Source: Peristeroidobacter soli (GTDB lineage: Bacteria; Pseudomonadota; Gammaproteobacteria; Steroidobacterales; Steroidobacteraceae). Taken from it: 64,000 nucleotides of DNA. Made by a program: the position numbers and the translations under genes. The notes below the pieces were generated by a model. That model searched no databases. It had not been told where the DNA came from and saw only the letters and a list, made by a program, of their open reading frames with translations. Location: positions 1,586,640 through 1,650,639 of the forward strand of contig NZ_ML142848.1 in NCBI RefSeq assembly GCF_004138485.1, given 5' to 3'. The first letter of the stretch is position 1. Each line of letters starts with the position of its first letter. Positions 12,039-35,970 of this stretch are shown in pieces.

Positions 12039-12115
12039 GGAAAGGTAGCTCAGCCGGTTAGAGCACAGCACTCATAATGCTGGGGTCGAGGGTTCGAGTC
12101 CCTCCCTTTCCACCA
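12039..12115 (+). tRNA. tRNA-Met (anticodon CAU)
   Basis: A full cloverleaf of 77 nt with encoded CCA. Acceptor stem GGAAAGG/CCTTTCC, D arm GCTC/GAGC, anticodon stem CAGCA/TGCTG around the loop CTCATAA (anticodon CAT), T stem GAGGG/CCCTC with TTCGAGT loop. The D loop and the GGGTC variable region look like elongator tRNA-Met; tRNA-Ile2, which also has CAT, is less likely. Its 3' end is the attachment site of the adjacent genomic island, and the gene remains intact. Confidence 0.95.
12093..12108 (+). repeat. attL core (tRNA 3' end)
   Basis: The 16-bp sequence TTCGAGTCCCTCCCTT recurs exactly at 33049-33064. Past the core the two copies stay similar (TTCCACCAT here, TCCATCAT there). The position in the T arm/acceptor of the tRNA is typical of tyrosine-integrase targets. 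Confidence 0.88.
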
Positions 12116-12279: not shown

Positions 12280-13449
12280 TCAGCGAATCGCCTCGATGTC
12301 CTCCGACTGGGAGCCGTCGATCCAGGTGGCATACACATCGAGCATCGTCTGCACACTGTGGCCGTGCTGCTTGGCCACCCACAGCAGATTCTTGCTGAGC
12401 ATCAGATTCCAGCTCACGAACGAGTGCCGCGCGTTGTATGGCTCGCGGTAACGGCCCTTCACCGTCATGGACAGCGTCCAGCGCCACCGGTCGTAGCAAT
12501 ACCTGAGAAGGCGGATTGGCTTGCCATTCGCGCGGAAGAACAGATGGTCGTGTTTGATCTTTCCTGCCAGCTTCATGCGCTCTCTCAATACGAGCTGGCG
12601 CTTGAGCACTTCGATTGCACGCGGACATAGCTCGACGATGCGATCGACGCCGGTCTTGGTGCGATCCTTGTCGCGGTTCATCACCCGAGCCTTGGTGACC
12701 TTGAGCTTGCCCTGCGTGAGATCGCAATCCTGGACCAGCAGTGCGATTTGCTCCGAGGGACGCAGGCCCGTAAAGAAACGAAACTCGTCGTAGTTGCCTT
12801 GCGCCTCACCCCAGTCGCGGTGAATCGCGGCGATGAGCGCTTCAGCCTCGTAGATCGAGAATGGCTCCGGCGCCGGGCGATCTTTCTTCGTCAGGCGGAA
12901 GCACTTGAGTGAGGACGCTGGGTTGCTCTTCCCGGGATGATCGCGATACCCATATTCGAACGCGCAGCGGATGACGCTCACGACGTTGTTGTGGGTCTTC
13001 TTCGAGATCTCCAACTTCGCATCCACGATTTTCGCCAGCGTCGAGTACTTCACCTCCTCGAAGATCTGGTTGCCGATGACAGGCCGCCAGGTCGACTCGA
13101 GAATCTTGCGATAACTCTCGACCGTCGCGAACGCCAGATCCGTCTTCGACATTCGCGCTTCGTTGTGAGCCATGAACTCATCGAAGACCTGGTTGCAGGT
13201 TCGCGGCTTTTGGACGGGGGCGAACGTGTCGAGATCGCGGAACTCCGGGAACTCCTCGGCGAACACGAACGTGCCGAGCGCGATTCGGCGCTTGATCTCT
13301 TTGAGTTGGACGTGAGCGCGCCGCAGGTTTGCTTCAGATGGGATGCGTTTGAGTGTGGGCCGGTAGCGCCGGCCCTGATACTCGAAGTCGAACTGGATGC
13401 GGTCCGGGCCTTTCGCTCGCACTCCAACGGTTAGCGACTTTCGACCCAT
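12280..13449 (-). CDS. int: Tyrosine recombinase/integrase of the island
   Basis: A 389-residue site-specific recombinase. N-terminal arm- and core-binding regions (about 1-190) precede the catalytic domain. Visible catalytic residues: Arg230 (FTGLRPSE), a Lys near 265, Arg341 in YNARHSF (the usual box II HxxR here begins with Tyr), His364 in KQHGHS and the nucleophile Tyr373 in MLDVYATW. It lies 165 bp from the tRNA-Met gene and is transcribed toward it, the normal layout for integrases that target tRNA 3' ends. Its start overlaps the end of the excisionase reading frame by 19 bp, so the two should be cotranscribed. Confidence 0.93.
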   Translation of the reverse strand: MGRKSLTVGVRAKGPDRIQFDFEYQGRRYRPTLKRIPSEANLRRAHVQLKEIKRRIALGTFVFAEEFPEFRDLDTFAPVQKPRTCNQVFDEFMAHNEARMSKTDLAFATVESYRKILESTWRPVIGNQIFEEVKYSTLAKIVDAKLEISKKTHNNVVSVIRCAFEYGYRDHPGKSNPASSLKCFRLTKKDRPAPEPFSIYEAEALIAAIHRDWGEAQGNYDEFRFFTGLRPSEQIALLVQDCDLTQGKLKVTKARVMNRDKDRTKTGVDRIVELCPRAIEVLKRQLVLRERMKLAGKIKHDHLFFRANGKPIRLLRYCYDRWRWTLSMTVKGRYREPYNARHSFVSWNLMLSKNLLWVAKQHGHSVQTMLDVYATWIDGSQSEDIEAIR

Positions 13450-19422: not shown

Positions 19423-20568
19423 CTATGGACTCCATATCTGCGCGCCGGTAACGACGCTGCCGCCCTTGTAACAGAACGCCACGCTGTATTTCGCACGAGT
19501 GATGGCGACATAGAGTTTGTTGCGCGATTCGTCAGTCTTCGCCTTCTTGAAGGCCGTGGTGTCTCCGCACAGAAACTTTGCATGGGGATCAGGCGGAATG
19601 ATCAGCACCCGCTCGAACCCCATGCCCTTCGACTCCCCGAAATTGTACGCGGCGCGGCCGTCGCATAGTGCTTCCTCCGTCTGCCGGTTCCGGCGCAGGA
19701 TAACGGGGTTGTATGTTTCTATGTATTCCTTCATGCGAGCTGCCGGGACAGCGAAGATGCCCTGATGGCCAGCGTGCTCCGGTGGCACAACAGTGATCTG
19801 CGATTTCGTGGGGCTATACAACCCATCACTCGCATGCAGCCGGTCTGCCAAATCGCAGATGCTCTGAATGCAGCGCCAACTGATGGCGAGGTCATCGATC
19901 GCGAAGCCCATGGCCGTAAATTCTGCGAGTTTTTCGGCGCTTGTCTGCGGCTTCTTTGATGTTTCCGACGTTTCGTAGATCGACTGCCGGAAATCGCCCA
20001 CGCAGTCGAACTCCGCGATGCTGGCCTCCAGCATCGCGCGGACCACTGCGAAATCCCAGCCGACGAGGTCTTGTATCTCATCGATAAAGACAGCGTCGTA
20101 GATCTCCGCAAGCCTATGCGCAGGCTTGCCGCCGCTTTGCTGATGAACTCTGGCGGCCAGCTTTGCCAGATAGTAGGTATGCGCATCGTTGCCCCTTGTC
20201 ACGTAGTGACGAGGATTCCAGTGGTCGCCGATCTTTTCCGTACGCCCTCTGATGTAGAACGTCTTGCCTTCCACCAGATGCGGGTTTCTAGAATCGAAGG
20301 CGATTCCCGAGACCCGCTTATCGAGAACGCAGCGCTGATAGGGCCGGATCATGTCCTCGAGCAGAAAAGAGAACCACCCCTTCACGACAATGTTCTCCGG
20401 CTGGAACTTATTGATGCGGCAGATCGCCCGCACAAGCTCGAACTGGTTGTTGATCGTGTAGGTGAGCAGGAGCACCTTACGGCCATGAGAGGCCCGTTTG
20501 AGCGCTTCCTTGGCTATCCGCTCGGACTTTCCGGCACCGGCGCTCGCGAGAAGAAGCTTACGCGCCAA
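19423..20568 (-). CDS. Short UvrD-like helicase (GajB-like)
   Basis: A 381-residue superfamily 1 helicase. Motifs seen: I ASAGAGKS (Lys14), II FIDEIQD (163-167), III VGDFRQS, IV-like ISWRCIQS, VI YVAITRAKYSVAF. It is much shorter than UvrD and lacks room for the large 1B/2B insertions, as in Gabija GajB. The start is a TTG at 20568 that overlaps the end of the OLD nuclease by 11 bp; no ATG lies before motif I, so coupling to the upstream gene is probable. The pairing with an OLD/TOPRIM nuclease supports a Gabija-like role. Confidence 0.82.
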   Translation of the reverse strand: MARKLLLASAGAGKSERIAKEALKRASHGRKVLLLTYTINNQFELVRAICRINKFQPENIVVKGWFSFLLEDMIRPYQRCVLDKRVSGIAFDSRNPHLVEGKTFYIRGRTEKIGDHWNPRHYVTRGNDAHTYYLAKLAARVHQQSGGKPAHRLAEIYDAVFIDEIQDLVGWDFAVVRAMLEASIAEFDCVGDFRQSIYETSETSKKPQTSAEKLAEFTAMGFAIDDLAISWRCIQSICDLADRLHASDGLYSPTKSQITVVPPEHAGHQGIFAVPAARMKEYIETYNPVILRRNRQTEEALCDGRAAYNFGESKGMGFERVLIIPPDPHAKFLCGDTTAFKKAKTDESRNKLYVAITRAKYSVAFCYKGGSVVTGAQIWSP

Positions 20569-22216
20569 AGCTCACGGCCTTCTTCAGGTAGTCGGGATAC
20601 TTGATGGTCTCTGCCGTATCGAAGATGCGCATCGCAGAATCGACCTTCTTCTTCGGTCCGCCATCTGTCAGGTACCAACCTGTCAGGAATGCGCGCTTGC
20701 CCGCCAAGTCGGCGCATGCGGCATATTCACCGGCATACGTCTTTCCGGACAGCATCACCTTAGCCAGTATGTCGAGTGAAGCGACGTTCTCGCCGTTTGC
20801 GGCAACCAGCGCCGGTTCCAGGGAACGCTCGTCATTGTTCTCCGGCGAAAAGCATTCAATGAAGTCGCAGCCGTCGTAATCTTCCTTCTTCCACTCAACA
20901 ATATTTTTCTGGTAATCGCCGTCGTTGTCTTTCACGACACGCACCGAATGCTTCAGCGCTTTTGCGATATCGAGATAGACCTTAAAGCCGATGCCGCGCA
21001 CGACGATGATGTCGATACCATCTTCTTCAGGCAGGCGACCATTAGCTGCGAGGTAGATTTTCTTCAGTACAAGCTCGTCGGAGGGACCCTCGACCAAGAT
21101 CACTCTCTGCGACAGTACGAGGCGCAGCGTGTCGTACCCCGGCAACCGTTTCAGCGTCTTGATCGTGCCCGCATCTATGTTCTTCAGCTTTTCGTATTTT
21201 TTTGACAGCAGGCACAGCTTCTCGATGCTGAGCTTGTTAAGTACATAGGAGCTGTGCGTCGTGAGGAAAATCTGTTTGCCCGCGTTTTTCTTTTCAATGT
21301 AGGAGACCAACTGGATCAGGTTGATGTGCGAAAGATGGTTCTCTGGCTCCTCGAGCATCACCACATCGACGTCCTTGGCCCTGTTCTGGATGGCGACCTT
21401 GATCTGTATCTGGTTCTGCTCTCCCTTGCCAATATGCGCGAAGGAGATGTCATCGACAGCGAGCGCGAGGTTGCTGTCCCAGCTGCCGGAAGGCGTGATA
21501 TCGGCTACGATTTCCAGTTTTTTCGTGCTCAGCTCGTTAGCTGCATTCAGCTGCGCGTTAATCGCCTTCACATCGCCCTTTTCATTGAACTCGATCTTCA
21601 GATGGCGGTAGGTCAGGTTGAGCATGGGGCGCGCATGCTTGTCGACCGATGCGTTGATGATACTGTTGATATAGCGCGAGCGCCCCATCGTGGGGTGCAG
21701 GCGCGTCGGATCGACGAAGAGGCAGCCGATCGGCTTCGCCACCTGCGCGAGCGGTTTCCAGGCAAAGCTCATCCACTCGATCTTGTACAACTCGAACGGC
21801 ACTGTCAGGACCTTGCCCGACGTGGCAAATGGCGCGTAGTACGGCGTGAGTTCGGGATTAAAGAGCATCTTCAGGGAGATGCCTTGCGTGTCGGCACCCT
21901 CGCTGTTGTTGTTCCCCTTCAGCTCGGGATCTCCCTCGACGTACGCCTCGATCAGAAGTTCGGGCAGCGAGGTCTGTGACAGATCACCCTTGATGTACTT
22001 TTCCATGCAGGCGCTATTGAAGAGCTCCGCCATGACTTCTGGCGAGAGCGGCCTGCCGCGATGACAGTAGTTCAGGCACAGCTCGATCGCTTCCAGGACC
22101 GAGCTTTTCCCGCATTCGTTATCGCCGACGAGAATATTGATGTCGTCGTTGAACTCGAAAGTCTCGTCCGCGAACTTCTTAAAATTCTTGACGCGGAGCT
22201 TCTTGATGCGCTTCAT
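20558..22216 (-). CDS. OLD-family ATPase/TOPRIM nuclease (GajA-like)
   Basis: A 552-residue protein with an N-terminal ABC/RecF-type ATPase and C-terminal TOPRIM nuclease. Seen: Walker A GDNECGKSS (31-39), the Walker B region VVMLEEPENHLSH with FLTTHSSYVL, and TOPRIM residues Glu376 (LVEGPSDE) and Asp430/432/434 (KDNDGD). I chose the ATG at 22216 because MKRIKKLRVKNFKKF is the normal family N-terminus; the frame is open to 22312. Length and order with the following helicase match GajA of the Gabija system, which nicks DNA when nucleotides are depleted. PARIS AriA/AriB has a different split and fits less well. Confidence 0.88.
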   Translation of the reverse strand: MKRIKKLRVKNFKKFADETFEFNDDINILVGDNECGKSSVLEAIELCLNYCHRGRPLSPEVMAELFNSACMEKYIKGDLSQTSLPELLIEAYVEGDPELKGNNNSEGADTQGISLKMLFNPELTPYYAPFATSGKVLTVPFELYKIEWMSFAWKPLAQVAKPIGCLFVDPTRLHPTMGRSRYINSIINASVDKHARPMLNLTYRHLKIEFNEKGDVKAINAQLNAANELSTKKLEIVADITPSGSWDSNLALAVDDISFAHIGKGEQNQIQIKVAIQNRAKDVDVVMLEEPENHLSHINLIQLVSYIEKKNAGKQIFLTTHSSYVLNKLSIEKLCLLSKKYEKLKNIDAGTIKTLKRLPGYDTLRLVLSQRVILVEGPSDELVLKKIYLAANGRLPEEDGIDIIVVRGIGFKVYLDIAKALKHSVRVVKDNDGDYQKNIVEWKKEDYDGCDFIECFSPENNDERSLEPALVAANGENVASLDILAKVMLSGKTYAGEYAACADLAGKRAFLTGWYLTDGGPKKKVDSAMRIFDTAETIKYPDYLKKAVSFGA

Positions 22217-22518
22217 CCCTTTTCGTTCCGTGTTGTTTTTGTGCGCAGATTTGGCTCGCCGCGAAGTATACGCCAGTGCGGGCGAATGCTGCACGGGCGG
22301 CATCATATCCATCCGCCTCGATATTGATGCTCGTCCGGCTCAATGATCAGCTGGTTTGCAGTAACCATGTCAATCAAGTTGGGACCGGCTTTACTTGAGT
22401 GATGCCGGGATCTTCTAGCGCCCCCCCCGATGTTCGCTGGCGGAAGTAGGGCGCGTCCGCTTCGGGTATATACTCGACACCCCACGCAGACGTAGCGCAG
22501 GTTCACGGTACGTTCACA
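22217..22518. other. Intergenic region upstream of the GajA-like gene
   Basis: Between the relaxase stop and the GajA-like gene. No ORF is convincing. It carries a run of eight Cs (22421-22428) and should hold the defence operon promoter; a TTGACA reads on the minus strand near 22371-22376 without a clear -10. Confidence 0.5.
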
Positions 22519-23517
22519 CTAGCGAACCAGCGGCTTGTCTTTCGACCGAACCTGGTGCAGATGCTCGATCAGCTCGTGCGCCAACCATCCCTTCTCTGTG
22601 CGCGGCGGCGGCATTCGGTTGACGAATCTCTCCACAGCATCCGCGAGTTGATGCTGTCCCTCAACGAGCAGCCGACCCCGAATGGCATTCCATCCGCTCA
22701 CAACATCCTTTCTCGTCTGCTGCAGCCGCGCAGCGCCCGATCCATCCAGTGAGCCCGCTTTCAGTTCCCGAGCAACCTCATGCACTCGCGCAGCGATGCG
22801 TGACGACTCGCCCCGCTGAGCCGCTCTGAAAATCGAATCCAGCTTCGGCGCTCGGCTCTGCCCGCGAACGCTTCGCTCGGTCGCATTCGCCTCGACCCCA
22901 TGCGCCCGCAGGTGGCGCGCAAACTCCTGGCGCCAGTGCCGCAGCGTAGCCTTGTGGATATTGAGTCGCACGCCGGATTCACTGACCGCCTTCACGACCA
23001 CATGAACATGCGGGTGGGGCTCATCCGTATGCAGCACCGTCGCGTATCGATGCTGGAGCCCAAACTCCTCTCGGGCGAAGTCGCGGACGGCGGCGAGCAC
23101 CTTCTTGGGTGGCGTGCCGGCCGGCATGGAGAAGATCAGCTTGTGGACTAGCTTCGGTGCGGCCCGCCGATTCGTAGCGGACAGCGCCGGGCGCTCTCGA
23201 TCTTCGTCCAGGTCCAAGTCCCAATCCTGGATCAGGTGCCGCCCAACGCCCCGGCCGCTCAAACGCTCGCCGTCGTCCGTCTCGATCTCTAGGTCACCCC
23301 GCCGGCCGATGTAGTTGAAATGGGCGTTGACGCCATGGCTGGTACTGGCACCACCGCCGCCGGTCACCTTCACCATCACCTCAGGCGCGTGACCCACCGT
23401 GCGGGCGATTAGCGCAACCTCCGTGGGAGACAACCGGTCCCGCTGTGCCGGTCCTCGGCGAGCGTAGCTCGTCAGATCCCATATGGCTCCGCCACGATCA
23501 AGATCGAACGGTCTCAT
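22519..23517 (-). CDS. MOB_P-type relaxase/mobilization nuclease
   Basis: A 332-residue relaxase that would nick oriT and pilot the single strand in conjugative mobilization. Seen: HGVNAHFNYIGRRG (about 61-74) and the metal-binding histidine motif HPHVHVVVK with His168, 170 and 172. The catalytic tyrosine is not assigned with certainty; Tyr18 or Tyr69 are candidates. It overlaps the preceding mobC by 20 bp, so the two are cotranscribed away from the oriT region. Short compared with plasmid TraI/MobA, since no primase or helicase is attached. Confidence 0.85.
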   Translation of the reverse strand: MRPFDLDRGGAIWDLTSYARRGPAQRDRLSPTEVALIARTVGHAPEVMVKVTGGGGASTSHGVNAHFNYIGRRGDLEIETDDGERLSGRGVGRHLIQDWDLDLDEDRERPALSATNRRAAPKLVHKLIFSMPAGTPPKKVLAAVRDFAREEFGLQHRYATVLHTDEPHPHVHVVVKAVSESGVRLNIHKATLRHWRQEFARHLRAHGVEANATERSVRGQSRAPKLDSIFRAAQRGESSRIAARVHEVARELKAGSLDGSGAARLQQTRKDVVSGWNAIRGRLLVEGQHQLADAVERFVNRMPPPRTEKGWLAHELIEHLHQVRSKDKPLVR

Positions 23518-24049
23518 GGCCGGCCCTCCAGGCGCGTGAATTGGCCCTGATCAGATCCTTGGTGTGGTCGCGCATCGCCTCGCATACCTTGAGCATCATC
23601 CGGAGATCCTCTCGGCCAGGTCCTGCCAAGCCCGTTTGATGATGAGCCAGGCGAGTCAGCTGGTTGAGGTTGCGGCCGATCGCGCCCAGCTCGGCGACGG
23701 ATCGCTTGAGCGCCATCAACTCCGCTTTGGGCAGCGGAGCCAGGGCCCGTAGGTGAGCCCGGACCAGGACTGAGACATAGGTGGCCGCCGGCATCTGTCG
23801 AGCTGCGGCTCGTTCCATGAGTAACAGCTGGTCTTCTTGATGCAGCCGGACATACAGCCGCGCCGCTCGCAATCGCCGCTCTGGCGATCTCAGAACATCT
23901 GCGTCGGCGTGGCTCACTCGCTGCACCGTCAGCTCGATGAGCTGCTTCAACAGGGCGGACTCAGTCATCTGCTGCTGTTCCGCGAAGCTGCGGAACTTCG
24001 CTTTCGTCTCCGGCGAGACGCGAGCAGCGATGAGAGGTGAGGTGCCCAT
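23498..24049 (-). CDS. MobC-like relaxosome accessory protein
   Basis: A 183-residue protein with an N-terminal ribbon-helix-helix-like DNA-binding segment (SPLIAARVSPETKAKFRSFA) and the C-terminal MobC motif AIGRNLNQLTRLAHH. MobC proteins bind oriT and open the strand for the relaxase. The gene begins within 45 bp of the predicted nick site and overlaps the relaxase gene. Confidence 0.85.
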   Translation of the reverse strand: MGTSPLIAARVSPETKAKFRSFAEQQQMTESALLKQLIELTVQRVSHADADVLRSPERRLRAARLYVRLHQEDQLLLMERAAARQMPAATYVSVLVRAHLRALAPLPKAELMALKRSVAELGAIGRNLNQLTRLAHHQTGLAGPGREDLRMMLKVCEAMRDHTKDLIRANSRAWRAGHETVRS

Positions 24050-25791: not shown

Positions 25792-26898
25792 CTACTCCCT
25801 CGCCGCTCCTGCCAATAGCTCAAAAGAAAACCTGTTTGTAGCCAAAGGAACGCCGCGGATTTTCTTATTCCCCACCAGCTGGCTCGATACTCGAATTTCG
25901 GATCCGTTGGCACGCGCGACGACTTGTGCCAGATATAGCCCGACGCCTCGCCCTTCTGCCACCTGGCGCGCCCACCGCCCGCGCTGCCGCTTGTTGAATA
26001 TTGTTTGTATTTCGTCATCTTCGATGTACGGCCCTTGAGATTCGACCATCACTTCGACCGTATGCAGGCGTTCGGTGATAGCGATCCGAATTGCGCCCGA
26101 TAAGCTGTACTTGACTGCGTTACTTATCAACGCGAACGGCACGAGCTTGAAACTATCGAACACGCGAACGTTCTTGAAGCTTTGGCCGCTAAGAAAAATC
26201 CGACTCCCGGCATCACCATCCTCGCCGTCTTGGATGCGGAACACATGCGCCAGCTTCAGCAACAACCCATGCAGCGAAATAAATGACTTTCTCCCAAACG
26301 AAGCTGCCGCCGGGTTGAAGTATATAGTCAGCAAATCAAATGAATCGCTCAGGAAACCTGCCGCCTTGACGAGAGACCGGAGATCTGAGTCGGCCCTCTG
26401 AAAGCGTTCCTCATCGGTGCCTTCGGGCAGTATTTTCGCCATCAGTCTGCCAGCGATTGTATCAATCTGACGGGCAAGCCGCGCCGGATCATGCAACGGC
26501 TCTAGCATCTCTGACTGACGCCCAAGAAACTCCGAATCGATTGCATGCAGGAGCTGCTCCACAGCCGCAACCTTGCTTTTCACTTCGTCTATGCTCGCAA
26601 ACCTCCCTTTGAGGAACGGCTTCAAGACTTTATGCGCCGAATTTGGATTTCTTTCGCCCCGCAATCCGAAGAACGTGAGCCGGGCATTCCGGAGCGACAC
26701 GACCACGAAGCTCATACCGTGCTCGCAAACGGCCTCGTCGACCAGACGATCCGCACGAGCGCACTGTGGCGCGCCGCCACACTTTGATGCGCACCGAGAT
26801 GATCGCGGCATGACCGTACCGTCATATATCTTGTTCTCAACCACGAGAGGCCAAGGAAAGGACACTGCCTTCGTGTCTAGGAGATCAACGATTCGCAT
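25792..26898 (-). CDS. HATPase-domain sensor-like protein
   Basis: A cytosolic protein of about 368 residues with a histidine-kinase-type ATP-binding domain in its C-terminal half. Numbered from the ATG at 26916, the N box is FALISNAVKYS (Asn266) and the glycine box GRGVGLYLAQ (322-330). The N-terminus has a cysteine cluster (Cys42, 46, 52, 64) that might bind metal. No classical HisKA box is evident; EPLHDP near 139-144 holds a possible phospho-histidine. The start could be 26916 or 26898; both overlap the end of the receiver-domain gene, so the pair forms one operon. Similar ATPases also occur in conflict systems, so it need not be a kinase. Confidence 0.75.
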   Translation of the reverse strand: MRIVDLLDTKAVSFPWPLVVENKIYDGTVMPRSSRCASKCGGAPQCARADRLVDEAVCEHGMSFVVVSLRNARLTFFGLRGERNPNSAHKVLKPFLKGRFASIDEVKSKVAAVEQLLHAIDSEFLGRQSEMLEPLHDPARLARQIDTIAGRLMAKILPEGTDEERFQRADSDLRSLVKAAGFLSDSFDLLTIYFNPAAASFGRKSFISLHGLLLKLAHVFRIQDGEDGDAGSRIFLSGQSFKNVRVFDSFKLVPFALISNAVKYSLSGAIRIAITERLHTVEVMVESQGPYIEDDEIQTIFNKRQRGRWARQVAEGRGVGLYLAQVVARANGSEIRVSSQLVGNKKIRGVPLATNRFSFELLAGAARE

Positions 26899-27661
26899 TG
26901 CGCAACACTCGGACAATATCCCGCACTACAGACCTTTCTTCACGACCATTGATCAGAGGCCAAACGAATTTGCCGAGGATCTGCTCACTTTCAGTTCCGC
27001 TCGCACTGGCCAGAGCTATATGCTTCAGTATGCGACGTCGCGAGCGACGCGGCACTGACATGAGGGAAGCATCGAGCGCACTGGCGAGACGCGGCGGATC
27101 CAGTTTTTCTCTTAGGGATAGATCGATAACATCTCTGCATTCATTAGCTCTTAAAGGCTTTTTCTTGTAATCGTTTGCCTGTTTGAAGAACGTCGTCGCC
27201 GTTGGATCGAATGACCTGCTAGACACTGCACAAATTTGCTGACGCGGGTTCTCCTCTCGCAAGCGTGCAATCAGTTTCAATCCTCCGTTCTCAATATCAT
27301 CCTTCACCACACCGTGCATATCTAAGAAAACGACATCGTATTCCGCCAAATGATGGATATCGCTCAATCGAACACTCTTGTAGCTCTTGACGTGGTAACC
27401 GTCGCGACGGAGCTCTTCCACCGGGAAATCAGCGATGTTGTCATCAACAATCGCAACCTCTCCCACATCCTTAACTGTAGAAGAATCCCACGTTGGCATG
27501 AAACTCTCGACAAGAGCAGCAGCACTCGAATGCCCGCCGACTAGCCTGATCGCCTTCCGAAGAATCAAAGTCAACGTGAACAAAGATCCCCCTATGGTGA
27601 TGACGTTAGCCATCCAACCCAACTCTCCGAGCCATGCCCTTATTTCTCCGAAAGCGGTCAT
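26885..27661 (-). CDS. Membrane-anchored receiver-domain protein
   Basis: A 258-residue protein: one transmembrane helix (about 17-39), a linker, then a response-regulator receiver (about 68-175) with the acidic pair Asp73/Asp74 (IVDDN), phospho-acceptor Asp114 (FLDMHG), Ser near 147 and the Lys in DYKKKP. The C-terminal 80 residues are helical with no DNA-binding domain. The ATG at 27661 has GGAGG about 10 nt upstream. A membrane-tethered receiver with no transcription output is unusual; it presumably signals by protein contact to the HATPase partner or to the divergent nuclease/NTPase operon. Confidence 0.78.
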   Translation of the reverse strand: MTAFGEIRAWLGELGWMANVITIGGSLFTLTLILRKAIRLVGGHSSAAALVESFMPTWDSSTVKDVGEVAIVDDNIADFPVEELRRDGYHVKSYKSVRLSDIHHLAEYDVVFLDMHGVVKDDIENGGLKLIARLREENPRQQICAVSSRSFDPTATTFFKQANDYKKKPLRANECRDVIDLSLREKLDPPRLASALDASLMSVPRRSRRRILKHIALASASGTESEQILGKFVWPLINGREERSVVRDIVRVLRNANR

Positions 27662-28220
27662 CCGTAGCTTTCCTCCGTGATTCTTAAGCAAACGTGTCTT
27701 TGATCGAGTGTTGAGAGCCCACTCGGAAATCGCCAATGGCGGGAAGTGGGTAAAAGCCAGGCTCCGGCTCCCCAGCCGCCCGGAGGCATTGCCTCTAGCG
27801 CTCAAGCATTATTTGATCGAGTGTTTCGGTTTGCGCGCCGACAGCCAATCTCCGAGAATCTCTCCGCAGGCGGCTTTGCCGGATTATGACCATCACCGCA
27901 CCACACTAGTCTGGTACGGAATTCTCAGTTCATGGCGTTCGTGTGATGAGACTTTGTTCTCTTGTTGCGGAATTCACTATTTATCCGACCTTCCCTTACC
28001 CGCGGCCATATCCCTGAGCCAGCCTTCGCAAGTCCCGAACGAAGGCTCACAACCCGCGGCCAACCGCCGGGGTCGTGCAAACCTCAACTGTGAGGCGTCT
28101 ACGGCAGCAGCACTCCCGATGACCGGGCAAGTCGCCCATAAATTCTTTATCGATTGTCCCTTGCGCCACTGACTCGCGGGCCCGATCACAGCGACTTCGT
28201 CATCATAGAGGTGGAGCATT
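27662..28220. promoter_or_regulatory. Divergent control region
   Basis: About 560 bp between the leftward sensor/receiver operon and the rightward nuclease/NTPase operon. Several short frames exist but none is protein-like. It contains two exact copies of TTTGATCGAGTGTT (27699-27712 and 27812-27825), 113 bp apart, which could be binding sites. Both promoters should lie here. Confidence 0.5.
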
Positions 28221-28331
28221 GTGTCGGGTTGTTGTATAGATCCGGCATCTCGGGTGCATTGCCATCGCCCCATTCTCAAGGAATCGATGTTCGTCCCCAC
28301 CTGGTTTGACGATGAACTGGACAACGAGTGA
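28221..28331 (+). CDS. Possible 36-residue leader ORF
   Basis: GTG start with GAGGTGGAG 4-12 nt upstream; reads to FVPTWFDDELDNE and a TGA that overlaps the ATG of the next gene (TGATG). The overlap suggests translational coupling. It is short and unlike any family I know, so it may be a leader peptide or chance. Confidence 0.35.
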   Translation: MSGCCIDPASRVHCHRPILKESMFVPTWFDDELDNE

Positions 28332-29653
28332 TGCGGTTTCAGAAATCCCACGGGCTTACGGAATCAGAGCGCGTCCTAGCGAATCTCTGCGAGGGCTCCT
28401 TCCTGCGGCTTTGGACGTATCCCAACCTCTATAAGAAGCTCAATAAGGAGCTAGCGGATCTACTAGTAGTGTTCGGAGACGATGTGGTCATATTTTCGGA
28501 CAAGTCCTGCGTATACCCCGAAAGCGGCGATACCACGCTGGACTGGACACGCTGGTTCAGACGGGCCATCGCCGCCTCTGCACATCAAATCCAGCAGGCT
28601 GAACGATGGATTCGCGCGAATCCTGACAAGATCTTTCTCGACGCAAAATGCATACGGCAACTGCCGATTCCCATGCCGAGCAGCGACCGCATACGCATTC
28701 ATCGCGTTTGCGTGGCGACGGGTGCAGCGCACCGGTGTCTCGCCGAGACAGCCCGTCCGAGCCTCGCTCTCGACCTGTCGATCCGGGGAGACGCCATGCC
28801 GCTTACCCTGGGCCGAGTGGACGAGGTGTCCGGGCATCTGCATGTGCTCGATGAAGCAAGCCTCACTTCCGTCCTTAATGAACTCAGCACGACTGCAGAC
28901 TTCATTGCATATCTTGTTGCGAGAGAAGAACTCGTGAGCCGAGGTTTCTTTCAGTCTGCCCGAGCAGAGGTTGACGTGCTGGCAGAGTATCTGTGGCACA
29001 ACCGCTCATTCCCCGCAGTCGCAGTCCCGTACAGCTTACGCGCAGGCTTATGGGAGCAATTGCTAGCGGACCCGACGTATCAAGCCGGACGTCGTGAAAA
29101 CGCGGTGAGCGCTTTCTGGGATGGGCTCATAGAGTACGTAACCGATCACTATCTCGAAGGTAGCCTCGAGTTCGGCAATGACGTGGAGATGAGCCAGTAC
29201 GAGGCACTTGCGCGGACAATGGCAAGCGAGAATCGCTTCTATCGCCGCATACTTTCAAAATCGGTACTGGAGCGTGCAGATAAGGCTAGGGAGCGAATGA
29301 TCTCAAGTCTTCTTCCTTCAGGACAACAGGACGTCTTCTACGTCCTGCTCATTGGCCCTGGCGCACAAAGCGGTGACTATGGCGCGTATCGCACTGCCCG
29401 AGGTCAGGAGTTGCAACTCCGATGTTATGCCGCGAAGGTCGTGCGACCAGAAGCCCGCATCATCGTCGGCATCGCTCTGGATGCTCGCGGGCTAGACGGA
29501 GGCTCGGAGGATTTCGTGTTCCTAGACACTGCGAATTGGACGCCCGATGACATGGAACGTGCGGCGCGCATCCGGAACCAGCAGAAATACTTTGTCCCGG
29601 GTCGGGTCATTGAGAGCCGAATGAACGAGGATGAGTATCCCGGCGCTCACTAA
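28331..29653 (+). CDS. Conserved unknown protein, possible PD-(D/E)XK-like nuclease
   Basis: A 440-residue soluble protein. The N-terminal 120 residues look like a nuclease-type fold: NKELADLLVVFGDDVVIFSDKS, then RWFRRAIAASAHQIQQAERW and IFLDAKCIRQLPIPMP. Acidic residues followed by a beta strand ending in Asp-Lys recall restriction-endonuclease cores, but the exact triad is not proven. The rest is helical. It overlaps the following Mrr/NTPase gene by 23 bp. A GTG at 28328 is an alternative start. I recall the family as recurring in defence loci; function is unknown. Confidence 0.7.
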   Translation: MRFQKSHGLTESERVLANLCEGSFLRLWTYPNLYKKLNKELADLLVVFGDDVVIFSDKSCVYPESGDTTLDWTRWFRRAIAASAHQIQQAERWIRANPDKIFLDAKCIRQLPIPMPSSDRIRIHRVCVATGAAHRCLAETARPSLALDLSIRGDAMPLTLGRVDEVSGHLHVLDEASLTSVLNELSTTADFIAYLVAREELVSRGFFQSARAEVDVLAEYLWHNRSFPAVAVPYSLRAGLWEQLLADPTYQAGRRENAVSAFWDGLIEYVTDHYLEGSLEFGNDVEMSQYEALARTMASENRFYRRILSKSVLERADKARERMISSLLPSGQQDVFYVLLIGPGAQSGDYGAYRTARGQELQLRCYAAKVVRPEARIIVGIALDARGLDGGSEDFVFLDTANWTPDDMERAARIRNQQKYFVPGRVIESRMNEDEYPGAH

Positions 29654-32600
29654 TCCAGAGAAATACGAGAAGACTGTGGACGATCGCGAAAAGCAAATTC
29701 CAGCGCCGAAATCTTGGGTAACGTTTGAAGATCTTTGCCACTCGCTTTTCAAGACCATATGGCGAGACCCACTTGCGCAGAAGAACGCTCGCGCGGGTCA
29801 GCCTCAACACGGCGTAGACATCTTCGGCTCTCCAGGCGGCCTGTACGGGAGTTACCAGGGAGTTCAATGCAAAGGCAAGGAGGCACAGTTCGGAGCCCAG
29901 GCATCACTTACCGAGATCGAAGCAGAAATCAGAAAGGCTGAGAAATTTGCACCTACGCTTGACCACTGGATCTTCGCGACAACAGCACCGGTAGACGGGC
30001 CGCTACAACAAGAGGTGCGAAAGATCTCTCGAACGCGAAGGGAGACAGGTCGCTTCACGGTGACTGTTCTCGGCTGGGGCGACATAGAGACCTTGCTCTG
30101 CGAGCACAAGAGTGTGCTCAAGACATTCTATCCCGAACTGGCCTTTGACATCGGGACCCTGCTCGATCGGCTCCAGAGCATGCCTCACGGTTTGGAGGTT
30201 CGAGAGCTTCTTGAGACAGTCAAAGGGCTGGGCACTTCAGGCCACCTGGCCCCCGGAATCCCAGTCTCTCCATGGAGACTCATTGAGTTCGGCGCAGGTC
30301 GGGATCTGGGTCCCGCGCTCTTGGGACGCCCGCTTGGGCCAAATGACGTGGCTGCCTGCCCGAAACTGGAAGAGGTGGACACGGTCCTTGCCGAGCTTAA
30401 GAACGCATTCTATGTTCGAATCGTTGGGGAGCCGGGCGCCGGCAAGTCAATCTGCGCATTTCAGGCAGCGATGCAATTGGCTGCAGATGGTTGGTCCGTT
30501 CTTCAGCTAAGAGATCCTCGCGCTCATTCCATCAGCTTAGTCAACCCAGATTCGGATCGGCCGACACTCTTCTTCATCGACGATGCCCATCTAACTGATC
30601 CCGCTACACTAGCCTCCGCAGAAGCAGCAGCCGGCTCGAAGCGATATCTCATCTCCGCACATAATGGAATCGACCGCGAAGGACCGTTCCGGGGCTGTGT
30701 AGTTATTGATGCCAAACGCGCCGTGCGAACGATAGCGACTTCACTTCGGTCCAATCCTGCACAAACCCTTGCCGTCGTTCAACGCGCAGACGATCACGTC
30801 GGCGAGTTAATGACGTACAGTCCTATCGAAGAGCGAATTGATCATGCAGAGAGAACCGCCAAGTTCCCTTGGCAGTTCTGCTTCATTCTCGGAGGAGGGT
30901 GGCGAAGAGCAAAGCAAGCAGCAGACAAAGCGCGGGCGAAGCGCGCCGATATCGTGCTCGCCGCTGCTGCAATTCATCAGCTAGCCTCGCGAGACTCCCC
31001 CCCAACGCTCGGGAAACTGACAGAGCTTCTTGAAGTGGCGGATATCAGTGCCAGCCAAGCGCACGAAGCACTGCAATGGCTGGTAAATGAACGGTTACTA
31101 CTCGACCTAACGGACTTGCGTTGCCCTCACCAACGGTTTGCTATCGTAGTGCTCGGCCAGATCCTGGCCACGGAGGAAAAGACGGGCAGAGATCGCATTG
31201 GACGCATCCTTTGCCATGTGATAAACGACATCTCGCACCCAATCGCCGGCCTCCGTTTGCTGCTTCATGAGTTCTCTTTTTGCGGTTCTGGCCAATATTC
31301 GTGGACGCATCTAGTTCCGAACGACAGTCTCAAGCCTCTCATCGAGAGGTGCTGGAAAGCATCCGGGCCAGAGGAACGAATGTTTGCAGCGCTGCTGATC
31401 AGCGAACTCGGCATGTACAACAAGGAGTGGCCGAAAATCCTTTTTAGTGACTCTCAGAGAATCCAGGTTATCGCCACGTGGATCTCTAATCTATCTCCAC
31501 CCATCGGATATGGTTTGGCGCGACTGCTACATGCAGTTCGACACAACAACAACGATGCGCTTGCTACAAAGATCGTTGAAGCAGCAGATCCACGCACGGT
31601 GGCGGCAGCGATATCCTTGGTTACGCCGACGACGGCGTATCATCTAAGCGAGTTCTTGTCCGCCGCCAGGATTAGGGACACGACTCAATGGGGACAGAAC
31701 GTCTTGTCGATCATTGAACGTGAAGCACTCATCGGACTGGCCAAAACTTGGCCACCATCGGAAGGCGCCAGCGGATTTGCAGCATTCTGTAAGAGCCTTG
31801 TTTGGACAGACGAAGACCTGCTTCTCAACATGGTCGAGGCATTCGTTCCAATAGCCCACCAACTACTGTCAGCTGATCCGATCTCTGCATTTCGCGACCT
31901 AGATGATATTGCATGGCATGTGCTGCGGGTTCTCGATCCGCTGAAAGTCTATGTGGGACAGTATGGCCCGAAATCTCGCCATCGCAAGATCGCCGCAAAG
32001 ATGCTTGGCGGCATCAAGCCCGATCGCGTCGCTGCGCAAATCTCTTCGGCACGCCTTCGCGACTTTCAAAGTGTCTCGTTCTTGCTGTCGTTCATGGCGC
32101 GTGCGGCGCGTAAGAAATTCGAGGCGACTGCCGCAGCTATGGACTGGACCAAGATCTCTGACACCATTGGAGCACATTGGCGCGGCCTGCCCCATGATGC
32201 CGAAGTGTTTATCGCAGTCGCCTATTCGGCGACTTCTGCAAGGAATGCGGTTCTGACGATGATTGAAAACAACATGACACGCATGGAGGTGATGCCAGCA
32301 CGACTTGCTCTCATGGCACCTTCATTAGCATATAAATACGTGGAGCAAGATGGTGTCATCGGGTTGGCCCACGGCGACCATGTCCAATGGCGCTTCGGAG
32401 TTGGAGTTATCGCTTACTTCGCCAGAGATCGTTCTGATCTACTCGAACGGCTCTTGCGCCCAGCCGAAGCACCGACGTCGAGCGTCCTTTCGAACGTCCA
32501 CCCAAGCTGGTATAAAGATGCCGCTGAGTACATCGAGATCCTGTCCGAAGTAGCGCCACAGAGCATGCAGCGCGTGCTTGACGGCGTCGACGTGAGCCGA

Positions 32601-32792
32601 GCTAGAGAAGGTTGGAGTAATGCCTTAGCTGCTGACAGCGGGGCGAGGCGCACAATTGCACTGCTGGTGGAAGCCAGCTCGGGTCGCTGTGATGAGCTAG
32701 GGGATCTGGCACGTGACTTACGCCTACGCTTCCCGAAAGCCTCCCTCGCGAAGCGGAAGAAGCGTGAGCGGATATCCGAGCGTGAAGCTTGA
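29631..32792 (+). CDS. Mrr-like nuclease fused to STAND-type NTPase
   Basis: A 1053-residue protein. Residues 28-130 form an Mrr-type PD-(D/E)XK nuclease: WVTFEDLC, then QPQHGVDIFG (Asp63) and GVQCKG (Gln79-Cys80-Lys81). A P-loop NTPase follows with Walker A VGEPGAGKS (Lys272) and Walker B LFFIDDAH (Asp317-Asp318). The remaining 650 residues are helical and repeat-like, suited to a sensor. Nuclease-NTPase-repeat order is that of Avs antiviral STAND proteins, though shorter than typical Avs. GAGG directly precedes the ATG and the gene overlaps its upstream partner by 23 bp. Could also be a modification-dependent restriction protein. Confidence 0.82.
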   Translation: MSIPALTNPEKYEKTVDDREKQIPAPKSWVTFEDLCHSLFKTIWRDPLAQKNARAGQPQHGVDIFGSPGGLYGSYQGVQCKGKEAQFGAQASLTEIEAEIRKAEKFAPTLDHWIFATTAPVDGPLQQEVRKISRTRRETGRFTVTVLGWGDIETLLCEHKSVLKTFYPELAFDIGTLLDRLQSMPHGLEVRELLETVKGLGTSGHLAPGIPVSPWRLIEFGAGRDLGPALLGRPLGPNDVAACPKLEEVDTVLAELKNAFYVRIVGEPGAGKSICAFQAAMQLAADGWSVLQLRDPRAHSISLVNPDSDRPTLFFIDDAHLTDPATLASAEAAAGSKRYLISAHNGIDREGPFRGCVVIDAKRAVRTIATSLRSNPAQTLAVVQRADDHVGELMTYSPIEERIDHAERTAKFPWQFCFILGGGWRRAKQAADKARAKRADIVLAAAAIHQLASRDSPPTLGKLTELLEVADISASQAHEALQWLVNERLLLDLTDLRCPHQRFAIVVLGQILATEEKTGRDRIGRILCHVINDISHPIAGLRLLLHEFSFCGSGQYSWTHLVPNDSLKPLIERCWKASGPEERMFAALLISELGMYNKEWPKILFSDSQRIQVIATWISNLSPPIGYGLARLLHAVRHNNNDALATKIVEAADPRTVAAAISLVTPTTAYHLSEFLSAARIRDTTQWGQNVLSIIEREALIGLAKTWPPSEGASGFAAFCKSLVWTDEDLLLNMVEAFVPIAHQLLSADPISAFRDLDDIAWHVLRVLDPLKVYVGQYGPKSRHRKIAAKMLGGIKPDRVAAQISSARLRDFQSVSFLLSFMARAARKKFEATAAAMDWTKISDTIGAHWRGLPHDAEVFIAVAYSATSARNAVLTMIENNMTRMEVMPARLALMAPSLAYKYVEQDGVIGLAHGDHVQWRFGVGVIAYFARDRSDLLERLLRPAEAPTSSVLSNVHPSWYKDAAEYIEILSEVAPQSMQRVLDGVDVSRAREGWSNALAADSGARRTIALLVEASSGRCDELGDLARDLRLRFPKASLAKRKKRERISEREA

Positions 32793-32942
32793 CACCGCCG
32801 TTGGTTCTTGCGGGACTTGCGAACTAGCGACCATCTTGGTGAGATTCGCATCAGTGACCGGCGAGACTCGACGTACCAACTCGGCGAACGCTGTGGCGAT
32901 CAGAAGTGCCCGCAACGTTACGCGCGTTCTCTCCACCGAACG

Positions 32943-33029
32943 CCAGTGCCAAATCCAGTGCCAAACTCGGGGATTTTTGAGGTGTTCCGGGGATCTACAT
33001 CCAACCACAATTCCGTAACTTACGAATTC
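32943..33029 (+). promoter_or_regulatory. Right-end candidate integrase arm sites
   Basis: Two copies of CCAGTGCCA (32943-32951 and 32955-32963) and a 20-bp block at 33010-33029, all matching elements beside the left core. They lie just inside the right attachment core. Confidence 0.55.
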
Positions 33030-33048
33030 TCCGATTCGCGGTCGAGTT

Positions 33049-33064
33049 TTCGAGTCCCTCCCTT
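33049..33064 (+). repeat. attR core
   Basis: Exact 16-bp copy of the tRNA-Met 3' segment at 12093-12108. It lacks the rest of the tRNA, so it marks the far end of the island. Confidence 0.88.
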
Positions 33065-33079
33065 CCATCATCCCTCACC

Positions 33080-33428
33080 TCAAGCCGCTGATTTCAGCGA
33101 CAGCCGCAAACCCAGCGCCTTGCTGATTCTGACCACCGTCTCGAACGAGAGCTCCGAGCCAGGCGCCAGGGCTTTACACAAGCCCGCGCGAGTCATTACC
33201 CGTATCGTTCGCCAGCTTCATGATGCCTCGTGCGCGAGCGATGTCATTTAGCACCGCCGTGATATAGGCAGGATCATCAGCCGCGTCCTCCATCGCCGCT
33301 TCCAGGTAAGCGGCCATGTCCCCCTCGCTCTCGAGGTAATTCGCCGCATCCCAGCGTCGATATCCGGCGGGCAGCTGTTGTTTGGCGCGCACCTTGGCGC
33401 GGGATTTGGTTCGAGCCTTTGTTGCCAC
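33080..33428 (-). pseudogene. HigA-type antitoxin, frameshifted
   Basis: The GTG-started frame reads the family N-terminus (WDAANYLESEGDMAAYLEAA, then NDIARARGIMKLANDTG) and stops early at 33174. The missing helix-turn-helix half (TRAGLCKALAPGSELSFETV, then KALGLRL) follows in another frame up to a stop at 33080. One extra base near 33195-33200 (GGTAATGACT) explains it. Probably non-functional, in keeping with the broken toxin gene beside it. Confidence 0.75.
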
Positions 33429-33431
33429 GGG

Positions 33432-33479
33432 TCAGCCCTCCAACTCAGCCACCATCTTCAGCACGCGATAGATATCCGT
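33432..33479 (-). pseudogene. Toxin gene remnant (HigB-like C-terminus)
   Basis: The last codons of a toxin frame, DIYRVLKMVAELEG and stop, lie 3 bp before the antitoxin start, as in HigBA modules. Everything upstream is replaced by IS110-type sequence. Confidence 0.5.
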
Positions 33480-33651
33480 CGCCACGTTTGCTGATTGAAC
33501 CCAGACGCCGAATATCGCCGGAGGAATACTCCCGCGGCGTCACCCCGCGTATCCACCTCAAACGATCGGCCCGAAGCTCTCGCGATGACTGATCGAGTGC
33601 ATATATCGATCTCGACCGCTGCACACGCCCAGCCAGCCTGATGAGAATCAA
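33469..33651 (-). pseudogene. IS110-family transposase remnant
   Basis: The stretch GVTPREYSSGDIRRLGSISK, continuing RGDGYL, is the conserved C-terminal motif of IS110/IS116 transposases. Only a fragment remains, out of frame upstream, and it is fused to the toxin tail. Confidence 0.7.
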
Positions 33652-33738
33652 TCGCCTCCGCGGCAGGCCTTCACTCCTCGATCAGAACCCGGTTCCTCGC
33701 CGTAGCAGCGTTGCTCGATTGTCAGCGAAGCCGACGAA

Positions 33739-35970
33739 TCAGACCTCCCCTAGCCGAAGATGCTGGCGAAAGAACTCAGTCACGCGTTGGAACGCGTCAG
33801 TGGCGGTCTCACGCTTGACCCGCGTGTGTCCTTCATCGGTATAGCGCACCAAGGTCACCTCACGGCCTTCGGCCCGCAACACGCTGTACTGCGCGACCAT
33901 CTGCATGATCCAGGTGCTGTCGAAGTCCCCGACCAGCAACAGCATCGGAGTGGTGACATCGCGCATGCGGAAGATGGGCGAGACAGCCACGTAATCGTCG
34001 AAGTTATCGAACACGTTGCCGCCGGTGGCCGGGTCCATCCCTCGCGTGGTGCTGACAGTGAGATCCAGCGCCATGCCGATAGCATTGCTGATCCCCGACT
34101 GCACAGCCGCGGCGGCCAGCATTTTGGTCTCGGTGACGAGCATGTTCGCCAGCCAGCCGCCGTTGCTGAAGCCATAGATGCCGACGCGCGCCGGATCGAC
34201 GATGCCTTGGGCGACCAGCGCGGCGACGCCGGACTCGAAATCGTCCACCATTTTTTTCACGCCCTTCGCGCCGACGGCTTCGCTCTGATATGCCTCGCCG
34301 CGCGTGAACCAATACCTGCCGTGGGGAGTGCGAATCGCCGGTCTGAAAATCACGAAGCCTTGCGCGGCCATCAACTGGCCCGTGTCTTCCACCAGGGCGG
34401 ACAGCCTGAACCGGTCTCGCGCCTGATTCGGATACGCATCCACGATCATGGGATATCGCTCACCGCTGCGATAACCGGGCGGCAGAATGACGACGCCGTC
34501 GACCTCCTCGCCGCTTTTGTTCTTCCAGGTGATCCGCCGTTGCTCGCCCAATGCGAGCTGGGCGATCTGCGGATTGGCGTCATGGATCACCCGTGCCGGC
34601 GCATTCGGCTCGGATATCACCAGCCGCCCTTTGAACGTGCCGGATTCCGCCCAGAACGCGAGCGACCGGTCAGCGAGGAAATCGAACCCCGTCACCTGCC
34701 AATCGAAGGTCTGCGTCGGCGTAAATTTGTTGGAGCGCGGCTCGTAGGACCACACGGTATCCACGAAGCGATCACCCAAGCGAACCGTTGCACTCCCCTT
34801 GCGGCCAGCCTGCAGTTCCAGCACCGGCTGCCCCGCCGGAGTCTCGATGGAACGAGTGCGGCCACTCGCCGTCTCGATCACGGCCAGCCGGGGAAAGCCG
34901 GAAAGTTTTTTTCCTGTTTCAGTCACCGCGATCAGTCGGCCGGGATCCGACCACACCAGGGTACGAATGCGACCCAGCGGATCGGCGGGCAACAACCGCT
35001 CCCGCCCGGTGCGCACGTCATATAACGCCACGGTGCTGTTCTTGGGCGAGCCCAAGGCACCGTAAGATTCGTTGCTTTCGGTCGCGGGAGTGATGTCCGC
35101 GATGCTGGCGATGGTGCGGCCATCGGCGGACCAGGCCGGGCAGAAATACTGCGCGGCCGTGCCGGAAACAAATTTCGTTTCACCGGAGGTGGTATCCAGC
35201 ACGGCGATCCGATTGGCGATGGACTCCGGATCCCGCGTACCTTGATTCATCGCCGCGACGAATTCCGGGTCGCTGCCGAACCAGACCGTCCAGTCATCGG
35301 GTGCGCGCAATACCCCGGCGTTGGCGGCTCGATTCTTGAAGATTGCCTCCAGCGAGCTGCGTCGATCGCTGGGGTGCGATTTGACGACATACACGCCCGG
35401 CAGCGTTGCATCGACGGGTGGAAGGCCCTTGAGCGACATCGCCACGGTGACGAAGGCAATGGACCGTCCATCGGACGACCAGGAAGTCCGGTGCGGGCTG
35501 CACGCAGCCCCCAAGGTCTTGCTCTGAGTGATGCCTGTCGGCAGTGTCGTCCCCTGCACTTCCGTGTCGGCGGCCATCGTCCACACATGCAGCTGTGTGT
35601 GACCGCTCTTGCGCGAGAAGAACGCGAGCTTCTTGCCGTCCGGCGACCACTGCGGTGAATGACCATCGAGGCGCTTGAGCTCGCGCCCATCCTTGGCCTC
35701 GACGATGCGAATGCCGCCGCTCTCCTCCACCGCCAGCACCGGCCGAGTCGGATGCGCCGCGATCGCACCGACGCCTTTGATGGCGAAGGCATCATCGAGA
35801 GTGATCTGCCGCAGGCCAGCTTCATCGGCCGCGGCAGGATGTAACAGACCGGCGGCCAATCCCACCGTCAGGCAAATCTTCGTGAATACAGTCTGCATGG
35901 AAGTAGTGCTGCTGAAACGCGCTCCAGCGCGGCGGGCTGGCATCGAGTACATCTGTGTGGCGGTTTTCAT
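33739..35970 (-). CDS. S9-family (prolyl oligopeptidase-type) peptidase, exported
   Basis: A 743-residue serine peptidase. N-terminal signal-like segment (FTKICLTVGLAAGLLHPAAA), a beta-propeller of WD/TolB-like repeats (HSPQWSPDGKKLAFFS, then SWSSDGRSIAFV), and a C-terminal alpha/beta hydrolase with Ser602 (YGFSNGGW), Asp684 (GDFDST) and His715 (DEGHTR). The ATG at 35970 has AGGG 7 nt upstream; one at 35898 gives a more usual signal peptide but no ribosome site. It follows the TonB receptor by 14 bp, so it likely digests oligopeptides or amides imported by that receptor in the periplasm. Confidence 0.88.
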   Translation of the reverse strand: MKTATQMYSMPARRAGARFSSTTSMQTVFTKICLTVGLAAGLLHPAAADEAGLRQITLDDAFAIKGVGAIAAHPTRPVLAVEESGGIRIVEAKDGRELKRLDGHSPQWSPDGKKLAFFSRKSGHTQLHVWTMAADTEVQGTTLPTGITQSKTLGAACSPHRTSWSSDGRSIAFVTVAMSLKGLPPVDATLPGVYVVKSHPSDRRSSLEAIFKNRAANAGVLRAPDDWTVWFGSDPEFVAAMNQGTRDPESIANRIAVLDTTSGETKFVSGTAAQYFCPAWSADGRTIASIADITPATESNESYGALGSPKNSTVALYDVRTGRERLLPADPLGRIRTLVWSDPGRLIAVTETGKKLSGFPRLAVIETASGRTRSIETPAGQPVLELQAGRKGSATVRLGDRFVDTVWSYEPRSNKFTPTQTFDWQVTGFDFLADRSLAFWAESGTFKGRLVISEPNAPARVIHDANPQIAQLALGEQRRITWKNKSGEEVDGVVILPPGYRSGERYPMIVDAYPNQARDRFRLSALVEDTGQLMAAQGFVIFRPAIRTPHGRYWFTRGEAYQSEAVGAKGVKKMVDDFESGVAALVAQGIVDPARVGIYGFSNGGWLANMLVTETKMLAAAAVQSGISNAIGMALDLTVSTTRGMDPATGGNVFDNFDDYVAVSPIFRMRDVTTPMLLLVGDFDSTWIMQMVAQYSVLRAEGREVTLVRYTDEGHTRVKRETATDAFQRVTEFFRQHLRLGEV

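What the first reader, a model, noticed from the sequence alone, without database searches (positions are those of the whole stretch)
28221..32792. Nuclease-like protein plus Mrr/STAND fusion as a candidate undescribed defence pair
Seen: two rightward genes overlapping by 23 bp, the second with an intact Mrr-type site (Asp63, Gln79-x-Lys81), Walker A/B, and a 650-residue helical repeat region. Known: Avs proteins join nuclease, STAND NTPase and repeat sensor in this order. Inferred: infection sensing by the repeats activates DNA cleavage. The partner protein of 440 residues, with its own nuclease-like core, is not part of any Avs system I know.
Basis: partly seen in the sequence, partly recalled or inferred. 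Interest (0 to 1): 0.8.

Follow-up and report, generated by a model that had tools for sequence, protein, structure and literature searches.

The report
Two defence genes sharing one island
Two neighbouring bacterial genes that look like a matched anti-virus pair are more likely two separate defence genes on one mobile DNA island: a nuclease-armed infection sensor of a known general kind, and an unstudied nuclease-like protein whose relatives also occur as lone cargo genes in phage satellites.

Summary
Both genes are real. P2 (1053 aa) is an Mrr-type nuclease / STAND NTPase / helical-repeat protein; D63, Q79, K81 and the P-loop lysine are invariant in 11 of 11 aligned sequences. Its top fold hits are SAMD9 and Avs5. 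It works like an Avs protein but matches no PADLOC Avs profile. P1 (440 aa) belongs to uncharacterised phrog_18195, with a predicted alpha-beta-beta-beta-alpha, PD-(D/E)XK-like start; no fold match is significant.

The "pair" is not supported: P1 is next to P2 in 0 of 12 orthologue loci, absent from 9 of 10 P2 genomes, and 0 of 12 P1 genomes have P2 over most of its length. The 23-bp overlap depends on the start codon; 12 of 12 orthologues favour GTG 29676, leaving 22 bp.

Both genes end a probable 21-kb tRNA-Met island with integrase, relaxase and GajA. P1 relatives are lone cargo in P4-like satellites. Best reading: two separate defence genes. Left open: in four of five close-clade loci a large nuclease-like gene follows P1 (three judged by eye).

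The parts
28331..29653 (+). P1, 440-aa uncharacterised protein (phrog_18195 family), PD-(D/E)XK-like N-terminus
28361..28618 (+). P1 residues 11-96: predicted alpha-beta-beta-beta-alpha core with E13, E40, D43, S56-D57-K58
29676..32792 (+). P2, Mrr/STAND/helical-repeat protein, GTG start favoured by 12 of 12 orthologues (ORF open from ATG 29631, 1053 aa)
29676..30155 (+). P2 Mrr-type restriction endonuclease domain (D63 at 29817-29819; Q79-C80-K81 at 29865-29873)
30426..30449 (+). P2 Walker A, residues 266-273
30567..30584 (+). P2 Walker B, residues 313-318
30828..32729 (+). P2 helical repeat region (residues about 400-1033), presumed sensor
12039..12115 (+). tRNA-Met; its 3' part 12093-12108 is the probable left attachment repeat
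33049..33064 (+). second copy of the 16 bp of the tRNA-Met 3' part: probable right end of the island
12280..13449 (-). tyrosine integrase next to the tRNA
20558..22312 (-). GajA (Gabija)
19423..20568 (-). UvrD-like helicase gene next to gajA, presumably gajB (not scanned with PADLOC)
22519..24049 (-). relaxase and NikA/MobC-like mobilisation genes

Best explanation
The locus is the cargo end of a probable 21-kb tRNA-Met integrative, mobilisable island and holds two separate anti-phage genes that are adjacent and perhaps co-transcribed. P2 is a stand-alone Avs-like protein. By inference, the helical repeats bind a phage protein, the STAND NTPase then oligomerises, and the Mrr domains come together and cut DNA, phage and host, so the infected cell dies. 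P1 is a stand-alone nuclease-like effector of an uncharacterised family. By inference, its N-terminal PD-(D/E)XK-like domain cuts nucleic acid when the conserved C-terminal two thirds sense infection. Shown: genes, conserved sites, predicted folds, the tRNA repeat, separate distribution of the two families, P1 relatives as lone annotated cargo in P4-like satellites. Inferred: catalysis, triggers, co-transcription, defence activity.
For: P2: nSTAND3 in 10 of 11 members; catalytic and P-loop residues invariant in 11 of 11; Foldseek ranks 1 and 2 are SAMD9 9zjs (E 7e-8) and EfAvs5 9jap (E 2e-5); passages of PMC12931631 report nSTAND3 and SAMD9 similarity for Avs5 and nuclease effectors for Avs1-4. 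P2 without P1: adjacent in 0 of 12 orthologue loci, P1 present in 1 of 10 P2 genomes. E. coli P2 orthologue in a gene cluster with Hachiman, two genes away. P1: model pLDDT 86.7 with alpha-beta-beta-beta-alpha start; E13, E40 and D43 in 33 of 33 representatives that have the position; lone annotated cargo at the psu/delta end of P4-like satellites in two strains, which on the circular map (my inference) is the psu-int hotspot described in PMC9122126 (passages seen); in a satellite-like element and a lambdoid prophage. Island: integrase beside tRNA-Met, 16 bp of the tRNA 3' part repeated at 33049-33064.
Against: No fold match for P1 reaches significance (best PDB E 0.04, an inorganic pyrophosphatase; best viral E 0.0088), and no Pfam nuclease hit in 18 members at E 10 or in its N-terminal fragment. 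Five of 34 P1 representatives with the position have Arg for K58. In four of the five close-clade P1 loci (window included) a large nuclease-like gene follows P1, which could mean real partnership. L051 has P1 1.4 kb from P2. I saw no phage assay of either family in what I read.
Confidence: 0.6

Rival explanations
1. P1 and P2 form one two-gene system, P1 being a nuclease or regulator that works only with P2.
For: Same strand, 22-bp gap or 23-bp overlap. The promoter scan found no plus-strand site anywhere in 27600-33800, upstream of P1 either, so it says little. L051 holds both, with another gene between.
Against: P1 adjacent in 0 of 12 P2 orthologue loci; absent from 9 of 10 P2 genomes; 0 of 12 P1 genomes has P2 over most of its length.
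Confidence: 0.1
2. A P1 subclade is an exchangeable module that works with varying large nuclease-repeat partners encoded just downstream: Mrr-STAND-repeat in the window, other large nuclease-like proteins in relatives.
For: Four of five close-clade loci (the window itself, L005, L006, L109; relatives about 50-57% identical to window P1) have a large downstream gene; in the three relatives I read a nuclease-like motif by eye. A more distant P1 locus, L111, has an Mrr_cat gene 49 bp upstream.
Against: L130 (51%) is followed by a gene I read by eye as a transposase. The L005, L006 and L109 partners got no Pfam hit whole or as fragments at E 10. Profile comparison of the L005/L006 partner with P2 found nothing. 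No control for the neighbours expected in defence islands was run.
Confidence: 0.2
3. P1 is not a nuclease but a degenerate fold of that type that binds nucleic acid or protein, for example a counter-phage or satellite regulatory factor.
For: Arg in place of K58 in 5 of 34 representatives; no significant nuclease match; C-terminal SEC-C pattern in 10 of 35.
Against: E13, E40, D43 in 33 of 33 that cover them; topology fits; nuclease names are the commonest among the weak viral fold hits (15 of 29 named among the 50 shown).
Confidence: 0.25

Closest known systems
Avs/AVAST proteins (Avs1-4 nuclease effectors; Avs5 Sir2-nSTAND3)
   Same: P2 has effector - STAND NTPase - helical repeats in one chain; nSTAND3 as in Avs5; EfAvs5 is Foldseek rank 2.
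   Different: Mrr-type effector joined to an nSTAND3-type NTPase; no PADLOC Avs model matches at E 1. Fold match has low TM-scores (0.23-0.27).
Mrr_cat-STAND-repeat proteins of the P4 hotspot (PMC9122126, passages)
   Same: Same three-part architecture in words: STAND NTPase with C-terminal repeats and an N-terminal Mrr_cat domain.
   Different: Their sequences sit in a supplement I could not open, so homology was not tested.
phrog_18195
   Same: P1 matches it over residues 5-399, E 1.9e-43; 18 of 18 aligned members match.
   Different: Family of unknown function; window P1 lacks the C-terminal SEC-C pattern found in 10 of 35 representatives.
RecE / lambda-exonuclease / Cas4-type PD-(D/E)XK nucleases
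   Same: Weak fold hits of the P1 model.
   Different: None significant; P1 has Ser (Phe in 5 of 34) where the usual acidic residue of (D/E)xK would stand (motif recalled).

Membership tests
Avs/AVAST (for P2) | N-terminal effector, central STAND NTPase, C-terminal repeats in one protein | tested here: met
Avs/AVAST (for P2) | match to a named Avs profile | tested here: not met
   only PDC-S73 (2 of 11 members) and PDC-M58A (1 of 11), weak
Avs/AVAST (for P2) | activation by a phage protein followed by nuclease activity | not testable with these tools
   needs experiment
PD-(D/E)XK nucleases (for P1) | alpha-beta-beta-beta-alpha core | tested here: met
PD-(D/E)XK nucleases (for P1) | significant profile or fold match | tested here: not met
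PD-(D/E)XK nucleases (for P1) | conserved acidic residues and lysine | tested here: inconclusive
   E13, E40, D43 33 of 33; K58 29 of 34, R in 5; Ser 29 and Phe 5 of 34 at position 56
constant two-gene system P1+P2 | the two genes kept together in relatives | tested here: not met
phrog_18195 (for P1) | profile match over most of the length | tested here: met

The most novel reading that the evidence does not exclude
phrog_18195 proteins are an undescribed single-gene anti-phage nuclease family, spread by P4-like satellites, prophages and plasmids, and one SEC-C-less subclade has become an exchangeable module that works with different large nuclease/sensor proteins encoded just downstream, P2 being one of them.
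Probability: 0.2. Interest if true: 0.75.

Novelty: new variant of a known kind. Interest (0 to 1): 0.5.

Why it matters
It turns a supposed pair into two testable single-gene defence candidates. P2 would widen the nuclease-STAND family with an Mrr-nSTAND3 branch that also exists in E. coli. P1 would give a function to a protein family that E. coli records call 'YecA family' or 'SEC-C' protein and that sits as cargo in P4-like satellites, where it can be assayed directly.

Tried and rejected
Rejected: constant pair. Rejected: P1 related by sequence to P2's nuclease domain; profile comparison gave nothing. Rejected: partner of L005/L006 as a relative of P2. Rejected: P1 as a defence protein of the libraries searched; PADLOC and NCBIfam gave no hit; the phage collection gave no match at 1e-5. 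Led nowhere: solved-structure sequence searches, none for P2, only SEC-C peptides above E 0.01 for P1; accession and PHROG-name search in papers (0 papers); papers joining SEC-C with defence (the SEC-C terms have 0 occurrences in each listed paper; listed were 15 of 198, 7 of 7, 20 of 482, 8 of 8); Avs/STAND listings. DefensePredictor main text searched for SEC-C and YecA: 0. Supplementary tables were not open to me, so P1 may be listed in those of PMC9122126.

Rows dropped before counting: one search found 69 P1-like ORFs. For one search, 22 loci that repeat a place or hold fragments were left out by a list of mine, and ORFs under 350 aa, which leaves 44; 35 after clustering at 90%. L006 P1, two frames in its record, is among the short pieces and not among the 35; L134 and L135 were fetched later. 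The count of 12 P2 loci takes the Klebsiella/E. coli type once: 14 plasmid records match the window at 39.2-39.4% (not compared with each other) and 21 E. coli genomes carry at least 80% of the L003 gene. L046 is cut by its contig end. Loci fetched after one search were not rescanned with the P2 profile, except as whole genomes.

Full report
The observation. P1 runs 28331-29653 (440 aa) and the P2 ORF 29631-32792 (1053 aa), both rightward. P2's Mrr site (D63, Q79-C80-K81), Walker A (266-273) and Walker B (313-318) are present; D63, Q79, K81, K272 and D317 are invariant in 11 of 11 sequences of alignment A5. The nuclease domain alone gives Mrr_cat E 0.015 in the window and Mrr_cat_2 3.3e-7 in orthologue L047. 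Pfam gives nSTAND3 above cut-off, in 10 of 11 members. The overlap of 23 bp depends on ATG 29631; 10 of 10 orthologues in A5 carry Met where the window has GTG at 29676 and both orthologues in A2 start there, so a 22-bp gap is more likely.

What P2 is. AlphaFold gives mean pLDDT 84.4, pTM 0.65, with a long almost all-helical C-terminal part. Foldseek against the PDB ranks SAMD9 (E 7e-8) and EfAvs5 (E 2e-5) first, then armadillo/HEAT-type proteins; TM-scores of these two are low (0.15-0.27). PMC12931631 (passages seen) states that Avs5 has nSTAND3 and resembles SAMD9, and that Avs1-4 have nuclease effectors. PMC9122126 (passages seen) reports STAND-repeat proteins with Mrr_cat in place of TIR in the P4 hotspot. 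PADLOC has no matching Avs model. So P2 works like an Avs protein, and is a new branch rather than a tested member of a named type.

What P1 is. No Pfam family passes, and no PADLOC or NCBIfam family matches; PHROG 18195, unknown function, 18 of 18 aligned members. The model (pLDDT 86.7) begins helix-strand-strand-strand-helix, with D43 in the second strand and S56-D57-K58 at the end of the third. In 35 representatives E13, E40 and D43 are present in 33 of 33 that cover them; K58 in 29 of 34, Arg in 5. Fold hits are weak: PDB rank 1 is an inorganic pyrophosphatase and cohesin heads also score, but of the first 15 PDB hits five are exonucleases or Cas4-type proteins (3l0a, 3h4r, 9iac, 4ic1, 3syy; SSO0001 as Cas4 is recalled), and of 29 named proteins among the 50 viral hits shown 15 are called PD-(D/E)XK, exonuclease, RecB or Cas4. 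Against: none has E under 0.001, and Pfam finds no nuclease at E 10. Ten of 35 representatives end in a SEC-C-like cysteine pattern (Pfam SEC-C in 8 of 18); window P1 does not.

Distribution. P2: relatives over the whole length in 10 genome contigs (L046 cut by its contig end), in one Klebsiella/E. coli type and in Janthinobacterium. None of these 12 has P1 next to it; in L051 a P1 lies 1.4 kb downstream on the other strand with one gene between. Other neighbours vary: HipA, SMC-like, cytochrome, TIGR02391 plus an Mrr gene. Genome-wide, 1 of 10 P2 genomes has P1 and 0 of 12 P1 genomes has P2 over most of its length; 2 have partial matches. P1 is found in 140 plasmid records, 113 of them over at least 80%, and 19 viral-collection contigs, some near-identical. 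Genomes with a match: 7 of 398 of the phylum, counting the window's own and one marginal match; 4 of 369 of the class, again counting the own genome and one seen before; 6 of 385 of another class, one marginal; 2 of 98 relatives, own included; 1 of 48 in a third class, seen before. In E. coli a chromosomal version covers at least 80% of the query in 8 of 5426 genomes, seven at 99.7% or more and one at 74%, and a plasmid version in 21 of 5426. Two of the chromosomal ones were looked at: both sit at the psu/delta end of a P4-like satellite; the integrase lies at the other end, at tRNA-Arg in the one read to its end. On the circular element that end faces int, which I take to be the psu-int defence hotspot of PMC9122126. 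In a third E. coli strain P1 lies in a lambdoid prophage, and in Klebsiella L007 between a DUF5906 gene and capsid genes on a plasmid record that looks like a phage satellite.

The close clade. Five loci: the window, and L005, L006, L109, L130 at about 50-57% identity (L006 split in two frames in its record). The window, L005, L006 and L109 are followed by large genes; L005 and L006 share one family (61% identical), L109 has another. I read nuclease-like motifs in both by eye; Pfam does not confirm them. L130 is followed by a gene I read as a transposase. This keeps an exchangeable-partner reading alive.

Surroundings. tRNA-Met 12039-12115 with an integrase beside it; 16 bp of the tRNA 3' part recur at 33049-33064, 257 bp after P2, the only shared 14-mer that one search found outside the region. 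Between them: a Schlafen/AlbA protein, a transposase with integrase core, GajA and a UvrD-like gene, relaxase and MobC-like genes, a DNA methylase, a histidine-kinase-like ATPase gene and a gene with a weak response-regulator match. G+C is 51-57% in 27-33 kb against about 63% from 34 kb on. So the two genes are the right-hand cargo of a probable 21-kb island.

Verdict. Two adjacent, probably independent, defence genes. P2 is an Avs-like protein with an Mrr effector; P1 is an uncharacterised, probably nuclease-like, satellite- and plasmid-borne defence candidate. Defence activity itself is inferred for both.

Noticed in passing
window 12093-33064: A probable 21-kb island between tRNA-Met and a 16-bp repeat of its 3' part, with integrase, relaxase, MobC-like gene and GajA.
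   Followed up: partly
window 15643-16920 (-): Protein with a C-terminal Schlafen/AlbA_2 domain in the island.
   Followed up: no
window 25792-27805 (-): Histidine-kinase-like ATPase gene and a gene with a weak response-regulator match, side by side, beside a DNA methylase gene.
   Followed up: no
L135 8959-10422; L134 3453-4916: P1 relative as the only annotated cargo gene at the psu/delta end of E. coli P4-like satellites.
   Followed up: partly
L028, L031, L114, L115, L129: P1 subfamily with F-D-R instead of S-D-K at the predicted active site, four of the five with the SEC-C pattern.
   Followed up: no
L105 6643-8900: Upstream of the E. coli P2 orthologue: a TIGR02391 gene and a restriction endonuclease gene (its counterpart in L003 has Mrr_cat); downstream a metallophosphoesterase, a HAD gene and Hachiman.
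   Followed up: no
L111 8340-10430 (-): 696-aa protein with C-terminal Mrr_cat 49 bp upstream of a P1 relative.
   Followed up: no
L006 5953-7325: P1 relative annotated as two overlapping CDS in different frames, so probably broken or a sequencing error.
   Followed up: no
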